Shown: positions 3,629 to 31,824 of the stretch, in pieces | Position numbering within the stretch: position 1 is the first letter of the stretch | Layout: each line of letters starts with the position of its first letter | Assembly (NCBI GenBank): GCA_012729675.1 | Contig: JAAYCR010000039.1 | Coordinates: forward strand, 1 to 51,414 | Origin: Phycisphaerae bacterium | GTDB taxonomy: Bacteria > Planctomycetota > Phycisphaerae > Sedimentisphaerales > Anaerohalosphaeraceae | Direction: 5' to 3' | Length of the DNA: 51,414 bases | Position numbers and translations under genes: made by a program | Notes under the pieces: model-generated | Told to the model about the DNA's origin: nothing | Databases searched by the model: none | Seen by the model: only the letters and a program-made list of their open reading frames with translations

Positions 3629-4050
3629 ATTGACTATTGATTAATGATTATTGATTATTAATTAGAATTTTGGGATGTTTTTCGGGACGCAACGAAAATC
3701 GATGTCAATTCCCTTGCCTCGCCCAACAAGCTCTCGCATTTGCGAACCAACAACAACCCTTCTTCTATCAAAAACTCGATCCAGAATGCCGTTTCGTCGA
3801 TTTCTTCGACAACAATACTGATTTTGGAGGTAAACGCCGCTTTTGAGTGCCCCACACAAGCCGCACGATAATTCGCCGACACAGAGGTTGAACTGCGTAT
3901 CATCTGATGTCGGATATGATTGGACACCGGGTCATTCGGCAGCAACAAGGCCAGTTTAACGCACCGATGGGAAAAATCTTTGGTTCGTTTTTTAAGGTCG
4001 TCCGGAGTCATTATGCTAATAATCAATAATCAATATTCAATAATCAATTC
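3629..4050. mobile_element. S23/IVP cassette 1 with inverted repeat arms
   Basis: The left arm (3629-3664) and right arm (4016-4050) are imperfect inverted copies built of ATTGATTATT-like units. They enclose one S23 gene. The cassette sits exactly between the U-tract of the SRP RNA gene and the dnaX start codon. The arms differ in sequence from those of the second cassette at 15.6 kb, but the architecture is identical. Mobility is inferred from position and repetition; no transposase or recombinase is encoded. Confidence 0.55.
3658..4011 (-). CDS. Four-helix-bundle protein of the S23 / 23S-rRNA-intervening-sequence family
   Basis: The protein has 117 residues from ATG at 4011; an upstream in-frame TTG at 4026 lies inside the repeat arm. 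Typical family features are the N-terminal DLKKRTKDFSHRCVKLA helix, the IRHQMIRSSTSVSANYRAA signature at the second helix, and the EEIDETAFWIEFL helix. Members occur as ORFs in 23S rRNA intervening sequences and resemble the Avd accessory protein of diversity-generating retroelements; the biochemical role is uncertain. The C-terminal codons run into the left repeat arm. There is no clear Shine-Dalgarno. It is encoded codirectionally between ffs and dnaX. Confidence 0.85.
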   Translation of the reverse strand: MTPDDLKKRTKDFSHRCVKLALLLPNDPVSNHIRHQMIRSSTSVSANYRAACVGHSKAAFTSKISIVVEEIDETAFWIEFLIEEGLLLVRKCESLLGEARELTSIFVASRKTSQNSN

Positions 4051-13745: not shown

Positions 13746-13749
13746 GCGC

Positions 13750-13828
13750 CAGAAGACAGAAGACAGAGGGCAGAGGGCAGAGGGCAGAGAGGTCGATCTG
13801 ATCTCTGACTTCTGTCCTCTGTTCTCTT
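13750..13828. repeat. Gene-free inverted repeat of AGAAGACAGAGG-type units
   Basis: The left arm (13750-13790) is a degenerate tandem of CAGAAGA/CAGAGGG units. The right arm (13801-13828) is an inverted version (TCTGACTTCTGTCCTCTG). The loop is about 10 nt. Folded RNA would give a long imperfect hairpin between serA and top6B. It has the same architecture as the two S23 cassettes but without a gene. Confidence 0.7.
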
Positions 13829-13855
13829 ATACAAATGCATCAGGAGTTCAATGGA

Positions 13856-15583: not shown

Positions 15584-16056
15584 GGATAGAAAATAGATGA
15601 TAGAGGTTAGAAGATAGAGGTTGGATGATGGGCGGTCCTATTAAAAGTGTCAATGACTTGAAGGTGTATCGGCTTGCGTATCAGTTGGCAATGGAAGTGT
15701 TTGAAATATCCAAACGGTTTCCCAGAGAAGAGACCTATTCGTTGACCGATCAAATACGAAGATCGTCCCGTTCGGCTGCAATTAACATACGAGAAGGATA
15801 TGCAAAGCGAAGATATCTACAGGTTTTTGTACGGCATTTGAACGATGCCTTGGGTTCGGGAGAAGAGACGCGAGGATGGTTGAATTTTTCAATGGATTGT
15901 AACTATATCAGCACAGAGGAATTTCAGCGGCTGGACAGCCGTTATCAAGAAGCCAATGCGATGTTGTTTAGTTTGATGGAAAATTGGGAAAACAGAAATC
16001 AGACGGTTGAAGCCGGAAAGTAGTATCTAACTTCTATCTTCTAACCTCTATCCTCT
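15584..16056. mobile_element. S23/IVP cassette 2 with inverted repeat arms
   Basis: The arms are built of GATAGAGGTTAGAA units. A 24-nt segment at 15599-15622 recurs inverted at 16029-16052 with one mismatch. The left arm starts directly after the top6B stop, and a GAGG inside it serves as the ribosome site for the S23 gene. The right arm ends about 35 nt before the phosphohexomutase start. Mobility is inferred. Confidence 0.6.
15625..16023 (+). CDS. Four-helix-bundle protein of the S23 family
   Basis: The protein has 132 residues. It carries the family pattern VNDLKVYRLAYQLAMEVFEISKRFPREE, then YSLTDQIRRSSRSAAINIREGYA, and a third and fourth helix with the GSGEETRGWL segment typical of this clade. 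The subfamily differs from the S23 protein at 3.7 kb, so the two are not recent duplicates. The ribosome site lies in the repeat arm (GAGG, 4 nt before ATG). Function is unknown; members associate with 23S rRNA intervening sequences and resemble retroelement Avd proteins. Confidence 0.9.
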   Translation: MMGGPIKSVNDLKVYRLAYQLAMEVFEISKRFPREETYSLTDQIRRSSRSAAINIREGYAKRRYLQVFVRHLNDALGSGEETRGWLNFSMDCNYISTEEFQRLDSRYQEANAMLFSLMENWENRNQTVEAGK

Positions 16057-16090
16057 TTTTCCAATCACAGTGAACTTAAGAAAGGTTTTG

Positions 16091-28111: not shown

Positions 28112-28145
28112 CTTTCCACAAAATTCTTAATTCTCAATTCTTAAT
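28112..28145. repeat. AATTCTTAATTCTC tandem array
   Basis: Degenerate tandem copies of an AATTCTTA-like unit between the scaffold and capsid genes. It resembles one arm of the inverted-repeat family found elsewhere in the window, but no partner arm is seen nearby. Confidence 0.6.
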
Positions 28146-28156
28146 TCTTAATTCCG

Positions 28157-28528
28157 TTAGACGTACGCACGTCTAACGCGGAGGTACTCCTGCACATCCG
28201 CCCGCTTGCCGCTTTCGGCGGCGCGTGTTGCGGCCGCCTCAAGCCTGTTCCGTGCACCGCCGGTGCGTGTTTCCTTGACGCCCTGCGTCATCGATGCGGC
28301 ATTGACCGCCGCCTCGGCCTCCACTTGCTCCTTAAGCTGCTCCAACTCCTTGGCCTGCGTGTCGTGCAGCTCCTTCAATTCCGACAGCTCCTGTTCCGCC
28401 GCCTGCGCCCGCTTGCGATACCGGATGGCCTCGCCAACCGGCACCAATCGTTCATTTTGCCCTTCCCCCGTACCGCCGGCTTCGGGCCGGCTTTCTTCTG
28501 TACTGACCATTGTGTCTTCGTCGCTCAT
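28157..28528 (-). CDS. Putative phage scaffold protein
   Basis: The protein has 123 residues from ATG at 28528 (GGGAAG box). It is highly charged and coiled-coil-like in the middle (RAQAAEQELSELKELHDTQ then KELEQLKEQVEAEAAVNA), with a basic C-terminus (VQEYLRVRRAYV). Position between portal and major capsid genes, size and composition match scaffolding proteins of tailed phages. There is no family-specific motif, so the call is mainly contextual. Confidence 0.6.
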   Translation of the reverse strand: MSDEDTMVSTEESRPEAGGTGEGQNERLVPVGEAIRYRKRAQAAEQELSELKELHDTQAKELEQLKEQVEAEAAVNAASMTQGVKETRTGGARNRLEAAATRAAESGKRADVQEYLRVRRAYV

Positions 28529-30870: not shown

Positions 30871-31824
30871 AACACTTTCCCTTCATTGGTCGGTCATGTT
30901 TTCACTTGTCCCCCCGCACAACCCCCCGACGACCGGTTTGGTGTCGAAAACCACCCCCAATAAAATCCGCCGCCGGCGCGCAAGCCCCGCTCGGCAGAAT
31001 CGTTAAAAAAATATCCCCCGTCGCCGCAATAGCAAGATAAGGATATACGAATCTATGCGAACACCCCAATAACCAATGATTGGCTCAGCGGCAGAACCGC
31101 GACCCAATATAAAGCACTAAATCCTAAGCACTAAATTCTAAACAAATATAAAACAGAAAAACCCAATATGAAAACTGGAGTTGTCCAAAATATAACCTTC
31201 GTGCTTCTTCGTGTCTTCGTGTTGGTTTTTTTGAGAAAATTGTTGACGTAATGCGGATTATGGAGTCAAATTGAACGAAATCGACAGCCGAAAGACAAGG
31301 AAAAAAAGGATAAGGGAAAAAGTAAAAAGAGAGGAATTTTACCACGAAGAAACGAAGAGCACGAAGAAAGATAGACGGTTGATTTTCGTAGGATGGGCTT
31401 TAGCCCATCAACAAGCGGCCATTGAGCCGAACGATTCCCGTAGGGCCGAACACCTGCGTGTTCGGTCGAAAAAAGAAAACCCCCAAGGCCGCAGACAAAT
31501 GACGGCCGGGCGAAAGGGTACACAGGAGACAAAACGACGAAGGCTGCACAATACCCCCGCACCCATAAGCTGCGCTGCGATTGAAGGTAACTTGTTTTGC
31601 ACAGATCAATCGCTAAAATAGTGTCCATGCCAGACACTACTAAAATTTACGTGAATAAATTTTTGTGCCATCCCAGCGACGAGTGCGTACCGGGGCTATT
31701 ATGCCCTATTCGCCCACGAGTATCTGGCTTTCATAGTTTCTTAAATTTTCTCTGGCGCAACACTAAGATAGGACATGGAAAATTCAGAAGCGAAAATGTG
31801 AATAATTTATGGAGCAATGACAGC
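30871..31824. other. Repeat-rich region without a supported gene
   Basis: It contains the CACTAAATTC array copy 2 (31111-31154), the CTTCGTG inverted repeat (31191-31370), the palindrome ATGGGCTTTAGCCCAT (31393-31408) and the hairpin CCGAACAC-CTGC-GTGTTCGG (31446-31465). Frames present overlap the repeats and show no domain. No terminase or integrase is visible. Confidence 0.65.
31191..31370. repeat. Gene-free inverted repeat of CTTCGTG-type units
   Basis: The left arm (31191-31232, CCTTCGTGCTTCTTCGTGTC...) and right arm (31337-31370, ACCACGAAGAAACGAAGAGC...) are inverted degenerate tandems. The enclosed 104 bp are purine-rich and contain no gene. Spacing is larger than in the other gene-free copies. 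Confidence 0.7.

What the first reader, a model, noticed from the sequence alone, without database searches (positions are those of the whole stretch)
15584..16056. A second S23 cassette with the same architecture but unrelated arms
Arms of GATAGAGGTTAGAA units (24 nt, 23 identical, inverted) enclose an S23 gene of another subfamily, placed directly after the top6B stop. The ribosome site is within the arm. Two unrelated arm sequences with one plan imply the arms are made or selected for their pattern, not copied from one ancestor.
Basis: partly seen in the sequence, partly recalled or inferred. Interest (0 to 1): 0.72.

Follow-up and report, generated by a model that had tools for sequence, protein, structure and literature searches.

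The report
S23 genes inside seven-base-repeat hairpins
Across bacteria, small genes of the poorly understood S23 family usually sit inside a hairpin built from a repeated seven-base word special to each gene, and the same word recurs elsewhere in that genome without the gene, which ties unexplained bacterial seven-base repeats to one gene family.

Summary
An S23 gene (15625-16023, PF05635 E=3e-31) lies between 42-nt arms (15585-15626, 16025-16066; 86% complementary), starting 2 nt after the top6B stop.

The pattern is general. Inverted arms flank 60/101 S23 genes in order-level relatives, 62/88 across many phyla and 23/30 in Gammaproteobacteria, against 0/114 and 7/227 control genes. Arms are tandem 7-mers (sometimes 8-mers) with a shared polar signature, YAG-N4.

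The cassette sits at an operon junction where no relative examined carries it. Arms are inherited with the gene over short distances but turn over fast. S23 stays under purifying selection.

The new point: the arms' repeats also occur without S23. In the sampled host genome, 31/48 S23-less tracts match the arms of one of its 11 S23 genes (controls: means 5-9, max 18). Three S23-free relatives had no such tracts in 727 kb. Two gammaproteobacteria picked only by a 7-mer each had one S23 gene with matching arms, one of them the known Xanthomonas GGGAATC repeat.

Best reading: free-standing relatives of the rRNA intervening sequence, in which S23 acts on its own repeat. Spread, RNase III cutting and S23 binding are inferred.

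The parts
15585..15626 (+). 5' arm of cassette 2: heptamers GATAGAG GTTAGAA GATAGAG GTTGGAT, starting 2 nt after the top6B stop; overlaps the S23 ribosome site and start
   Evidence: inverted repeat I1; period 14/7; matched arm score 25
15625..16023 (+). S23 / 23S_rRNA_IVP (four helix bundle) gene, 132 aa
   Evidence: PF05635 E=3e-31, TIGR02436 E=1e-27; model pLDDT 96.9, TM 0.89 to 2gsc
16025..16066 (+). 3' arm of cassette 2, inverted copy of the 5' arm
   Evidence: inverted repeat I1; period 7
4017..4048 (-). 5' arm of cassette 1 (minus strand), TTGATTA heptamers
   Evidence: matched arm score 23
3658..4026 (-). S23 gene of cassette 1 (open frame; ATG at about 4011), between the SRP RNA gene and a dnaX-like gene
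   Evidence: PF05635 match at 3697-3990, E=4.4e-11; orthologous cassette in G003
3629..3660 (-). 3' arm of cassette 1
13747..13832 (+). S23-less hairpin of CAGAAGA/CAGAGGG heptamers (13747-13794 and 13803-13821) between the upstream gene (serA-like) stop and top6B
   Evidence: periodicity and partner; RNA fold z=-4.6
28119..28157 (.). lone AATTCTT heptamer tract without inverted partner
31112..31141 (.). short AAGCACTAAATCCT tract, same word as the arms of S23 gene L009 of this genome

Best explanation
The cassette is one of a very widespread class of free-standing, intervening-sequence-like elements: a tandem-heptamer arm, an S23 gene, and the inverted arm. Shown: the architecture, matched but cassette-specific arms, placement in operon junctions co-directional with transcription, purifying selection on S23, and a link between S23 genes and S23-less tracts of the same repeat in their genome. 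Inferred: the arms pair in the operon's RNA with the S23 frame in the loop; a double-strand RNase (RNase III, as in rRNA intervening sequences) can cut the stem so that neighbouring cistrons are spared; the S23 protein recognises its own heptamer hairpin and helps host enzymes copy, expand or move repeat tracts, so that S23-less tracts are non-autonomous derivatives. The enzyme that moves the DNA is unknown.
For: Arms at 60/101, 26/30, 62/88 and 23/30 S23 genes in four sets vs 0/114 and 7/227 control genes. Arm grammar YAG-N4, polarity 112:14. Upstream gene co-directional 124/138 vs 75.4%; arm starts a median 3 nt after the stop; 67% in gaps under 30 nt that hold 3.8% of co-directional intergenic bases. 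No relative examined carries this cassette at the junction. Two 88% identical cassettes at unrelated sites in G050. dN/dS 0.02-0.18. Resident S23 arms match 31/48 S23-less tracts, controls max 18; tract density rises with S23 count, 0 in 727 kb without S23. Genomes picked by heptamer had S23 with matching arms. Coxiella 23S intervening sequence has the same plan.
Against: No target-site duplication or excised form seen; no catalytic domain known in S23; 23-40% of S23 genes show no arms at the threshold; the G117 13-copy subfamily has a hairpin upstream only. The tract-S23 correlation rests on seven related genomes and does not show direction. Solo tracts show no co-directional bias. RNase III cutting and S23 binding are untested.
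Confidence: 0.55

Rival explanations
1. Regulatory reading: S23 is an RNA- or DNA-binding regulator, the heptamer tracts are its binding sites near other genes (a regulon), and the arms around its own gene give autoregulation.
For: S23 is under purifying selection; an SD-like site lies within the 5' arm; tracts are mostly intergenic; a regulatory role was proposed for heptamer repeats in Beggiatoaceae (PMC4679880).
Against: Solo tracts show no consistent strand or position relative to genes; the cassette is absent from the top6B junction in relatives and S23 is decayed at lemA-htpX in two of four same-genus species, unlike a conserved regulon.
Confidence: 0.15
2. Repeats first: heptamer hairpins arise and spread by an independent process (slippage, unknown mobile repeat), and S23 genes merely land in or are retained in them.
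For: S23-less hairpins exist, also at the same junction as S23 cassettes in other genomes; many tracts (17/48) match no resident S23 arm.
Against: Three S23-free relatives had no tracts in 727 kb; tract words match resident S23 arms far above controls; two G050 cassettes moved with arms.
Confidence: 0.15
3. Avd-like partner of a reverse transcriptase: S23 acts with a reverse transcriptase that copies the cassette through RNA.
For: Fold similarity to Avd (TM 0.80-0.82); weak bAvd/Avd profile hits; three reverse transcriptase matches in G000.
Against: S23-rich near-complete genomes have no RVT_1 match (G015: 8 S23, 99% complete; G030: 9 S23, 96%). A multi-copy diversity-generating retroelement with Avd (G510) has no arms.
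Confidence: 0.1

Closest known systems
23S rRNA intervening sequence with S23 ORF, Coxiella burnetii (PMC4990558)
   Same: S23 ORF, terminal inverted repeats forming a 28-bp stem, tandem heptamers GACAGAT upstream of the ORF (a YAG-N4 word), about 430 nt
   Different: Lies in helix 45 of 23S rRNA and is cut by RNase III; the window cassette lies between protein genes, and cutting is untested
S23 / 23S_rRNA_IVP protein family (PF05635; XCC0516 2gsc, BT_0352 2rld)
   Same: Sequence and fold
   Different: The solved proteins carry no described repeat partner in the held literature
Heptameric simple repeats: GGGAATC in Xanthomonas (PMC4692102), TAACTGA in Beggiatoaceae (PMC4679880)
   Same: Intergenic tandem heptamers; many Xanthomonas tracts form inverted pairs; same word around an S23 gene in G552
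   Different: Described without reference to S23
Avd of diversity-generating retroelements (4dwl, 8ub7)
   Same: Four-helix-bundle fold, TM 0.80-0.82
   Different: No reverse transcriptase or template/variable repeats at the cassette; below the Avd model cut-off (20.6 vs 80 bits)
Transposable elements with MITE-like derivatives
   Same: A coding copy plus many short non-coding relatives in one genome
   Different: No transposase and no fixed terminal sequence; ends are variable tandem heptamers

Membership tests
S23 / 23S_rRNA_IVP protein family (PF05635, TIGR02436) | profile score above the curated cut-off | tested here: met
   108.2 vs 33.8 bits (PF05635), 96.5 vs 24 bits (TIGR02436)
S23 / 23S_rRNA_IVP protein family (PF05635, TIGR02436) | four-helix-bundle fold of 2gsc/2rld | tested here: met
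   TM 0.89 and 0.88
rRNA intervening sequence (IVS) | inserted in an rRNA gene | tested here: not met
   between top6B and a phosphoglucomutase-type gene; no rRNA in the window by Rfam
rRNA intervening sequence (IVS) | terminal inverted repeats forming a stem around the ORF | tested here: met
   42-nt arms, 86% complementary; RNA fold z=-5.3
rRNA intervening sequence (IVS) | excision by RNase III without religation | not testable with these tools
   needs RNA end mapping with and without rnc
diversity-generating retroelement (Avd) | Avd model score above cut-off, reverse transcriptase and template/variable repeats nearby | tested here: not met
   20.6 vs 80 bits; no RVT_1 match on this contig
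heptameric tandem repeat (SSR) | tandem 7-nt units | tested here: met
   period 7/14 in the window arms
transposable element (IS/MITE) | transposase and target-site duplication | tested here: inconclusive
   no transposase in the cassette; intergenic DNA of relatives too diverged to read a duplication

The most novel reading that the evidence does not exclude
S23 genes and bacterial heptameric repeats are two halves of one element class: each S23 subfamily recognises, maintains and spreads its own 7- or 8-nt word, so orphan heptamer repeats (Xanthomonas GGGAATC, Beggiatoaceae TAACTGA, cyanobacterial short repeats) are S23-less copies, and rRNA intervening sequences are an rRNA-lodged branch.
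Probability: 0.4. Interest if true: 0.88.

Novelty: new variant of a known kind. Interest (0 to 1): 0.76.

Why it matters
Two old puzzles have stood apart: why heptamers stand out among longer simple repeats in many bacterial genomes, and what the S23 proteins of rRNA intervening sequences do and how those sequences move. The link found here gives each an entry point. It predicts, from a genome's heptamer, the arms of its S23 gene (checked in two genomes) and, from S23 arms, the heptamer families dispersed in the genome (checked in one). It also offers pairs of S23 protein and cognate repeat to test for specific binding, and a many-phylum class of hairpin elements that no held paper describes as such.

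Tried and rejected
1) All-three-frames stop function of the arms: 1.71 frames with stops vs 1.57 (sd 0.07) for unit-permuted arms, too weak to claim, although TAG is enriched as stop codon of the upstream gene (34/76 vs 98/455, p=4e-5), partly because arms start in phase with it. 2) Heptamer made from the target site: suggested by lemA ends (AGTTTTGA), rejected because the same S23 subfamily carries the same heptamer at another locus. 3) Reverse transcriptase dependence: not supported by presence/absence. 4) Phage vehicle: no hits in 50,697 phage records; 33 plasmid records, the listed ones cyanobacterial. 5) Multi-copy families to read the ends: G117 has no heptamer arms, G510 is a diversity-generating retroelement. 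6) Unit length 7 or 8 set by protein subfamily: holds only among fairly close relatives (p=0.005; lost when pairs above 60% identity are excluded). 8) Arm covariation within orthologous pairs was only suggestive: arms slip, and between-species scores are often as high as within-cassette ones. 9) rRNA-lodged cassettes among fetched loci: none found in 40 loci searched with Rfam.

Full report
OBSERVATION. The window is contig 29 of a 2.80-Mb draft genome. Arms at 15585-15626 and 16025-16066 are 42 nt and 86% complementary; the 24-nt core matches 23/24. The protein is a clear S23/IVP. The predicted RNA has a long arm stem, z=-5.3. A scan of the window for periods 4-15 found 21-nt periodic segments only at 7 and 14; the five period-7 segments are arms of both S23 cassettes, the S23-less hairpin 13747-13832, and one lone tract at 28119-28157.

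IS IT GENERAL? In this genome 11 genes match PF05635. Nine have matched arms scoring 15-28, while mismatched S23 flank pairs score at most 10 and the best non-S23 window gene scores 13. L010 has its 3' arm inside the ORF end (score 28 with a wider flank window); L003 has a hairpin wholly upstream. In order-level relatives 60 of 101 S23 genes reach score 13 against 0 of 114 other genes (the one control hit is an S23 gene itself) and 3 of 2020 shuffles. In 30 phylum genomes 26/30, and in 80 loci from many phyla 62/88, against 7/227 control genes. In a further gammaproteobacterial set 23/30, of period 7 wherever a period could be called. In seven cyanobacterial plasmid loci four have strong arms, mostly of 8-nt units.

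ARM GRAMMAR. Of 145 arms, the best period is 7 in 116 and 8 in 24. Rotation-aligned heptamers share Y-A-G-N4 (A 0.81, G 0.86; 2.64 bits versus at most 2.05 for unit-permuted controls). AG exceeds CT on the S23 sense strand of the 5' arm in 112 arms; the reverse holds in 14. So arms are not simply unrelated: most share period, polarity and a dinucleotide, while the other positions are free. The window's cassette 2 fits (TAGAGGT, TAGAAGA); cassette 1 (TTGATTA) lacks the AG.

INHERITANCE AND TURNOVER. Arm similarity follows S23 identity: 7 of 8 pairs at 80% or more have similar arms, 20% at 60-80%, about 2% or less below 50% (Mantel r=0.39, p=0.001). The murB-ddl cassette is kept across genera with its GTTCGTA arms; one S23 subfamily carries AGTTTTG arms at two loci (lemA-htpX and a second, nifU-like junction). 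At SRP-dnaX the orthologous cassettes of two species have different but self-matched arms. Because arms diverge faster than the protein while staying matched within a cassette, concerted change is the simplest reading, though within-ortholog covariation alone was not decisive. S23 is under purifying selection (dN/dS 0.02-0.18 where calculable), yet it is decayed at lemA-htpX in two of four same-genus species.

INSERTION SITE. The top6B-PGM junction is direct or nearly so in most relatives examined and carries no S23 cassette in any, including two same-genus species; a few lack the downstream gene next to top6B. Across loci, the upstream gene is co-directional in 124/138 cases (75.4% baseline, p=2.6e-4) and both neighbours are antisense in 1/132. 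The 5' arm starts a median 3 nt after the stop and the 3' arm ends a median 12 nt before the next start. 67% sit in gaps under 30 nt, which hold 3.8% of co-directional intergenic bases. ORFs were called mechanically, so these distances carry some noise. Selection against disruption can explain part of this; the excess in short operon gaps suggests that being transcribed matters. Two G050 cassettes are 88% identical across the cassette with unrelated flanks, so whole cassettes can move or be copied. In G126 a 435-bp tandem duplication runs from arm to arm.

S23-LESS TRACTS. In 376 kb of this genome without S23 there are 44 period-7 tracts; G026 (8 S23) has 9 in 400 kb; G035 (2) 1 in 200 kb; G031 (1) none in 200 kb; three S23-free relatives none in 727 kb; other periods stay at 0-6. 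Of 48 tracts (46 from the sample including 8-mers, 2 from the window), 31 match arms of a resident S23 gene, against means of 4.7 (distant arms, max 10), 9.4 (order relatives, max 17) and 7.1 (unit-permuted, max 18). Solo tracts are mostly intergenic (38/48 in DNA that is 85% coding) and show no strand preference.

HEPTAMER-FIRST TEST. Rehm et al. (PMC4692102) reported 186 GGGAATC tracts in Xanthomonas campestris, with 70 inverted pairs, and do not mention S23. Of 369 gammaproteobacterial genomes only G552 had (GGGAATC)3. Its one S23 gene, placed between genes that read as accB and accC (own reading), has GGGAATC arms (score 22). G340 was noticed because the reversed control pattern (CTAAGGG)3 hit it; its one S23 gene has arms of (GGGCCAA)n and (GGGCTGA)n (score 31), the same word family GGGCYRA. 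S23 is present in 77/369 of these genomes. G340 was not a planned test, so this is one planned and one incidental success.

MECHANISM. Shown: architecture, matching, co-directional operon placement, a cassette present twice at unrelated sites in one genome, purifying selection, and the S23-tract link. Inferred: stem cutting by RNase III (known for rRNA intervening sequences; in vitro for Coxiella, PMC4990558), recognition of the heptamer hairpin by S23, and trans-spreading of tracts. The AlphaFold model matches S23 crystal structures (2gsc, 2rld) and then Avd of diversity-generating retroelements, a relative that works in a nucleoprotein complex; this supports a nucleic-acid-handling role but does not prove it. 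Reverse transcriptase matches are absent from several S23-rich near-complete genomes.

COMPARISON. The nearest known element is the Coxiella 23S intervening sequence, with GACAGAT heptamers (a YAG-N4 word), a 28-bp stem and an S23 ORF. Window cassettes fail its defining location, so they are filed as a new, free-standing variant. Heptamer repeats in Beggiatoaceae (TAACTGA; PMC4679880) fit the same grammar on the reverse strand (CAGTTAT). No held paper makes the S23-heptamer link; the library is open-access only.

LIMITS. Draft metagenome assemblies; mechanical ORF calls; tract densities from seven genomes of one order, not phylogenetically independent; an arm threshold chosen after seeing the own genome but then applied unchanged to new sets; relatives within a set are not independent of each other.

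Noticed in passing
window 13747-13832: An S23-less hairpin of CAGAAGA/CAGAGGG heptamers sits right after the stop of the gene upstream of top6B, one operon junction before the S23 cassette.
   Followed up: partly
window 28119-28157 and 31112-31141: Lone heptamer tracts (AATTCTT; AAGCACTAAATCCT); the second has the same word as the arms of S23 gene L009 of this genome.
   Followed up: partly
L285-L299 (lemA-htpX junction in many genomes): One operon junction holds an intact S23 cassette, a decayed one, a solo heptamer tract or hairpin, or nothing, depending on the genome: a recurrent site.
   Followed up: partly
L240-L243 (G117): A 13-copy S23 subfamily without heptamer arms; an inverted repeat lies wholly upstream of the gene (AGTTCTCCTTATTTCAT ... 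ATAAGGAGAAC).
   Followed up: partly
L452-L461 (G510): Ten near-identical copies of an Avd gene, beside what reads as a diversity-generating reverse transcriptase and variable-region repeats, in a 1.5-Mb gammaproteobacterial genome; no heptamer arms.
   Followed up: partly
L244 (G126): Two S23 genes in tandem, arm-S23-arm-S23-arm-loop-inverted arm: a 435-bp duplication between heptamer arrays.
   Followed up: yes
L003 (G000:C42:15644): An S23 gene whose AGTAGAG-type hairpin lies wholly upstream of the gene instead of around it.
   Followed up: no
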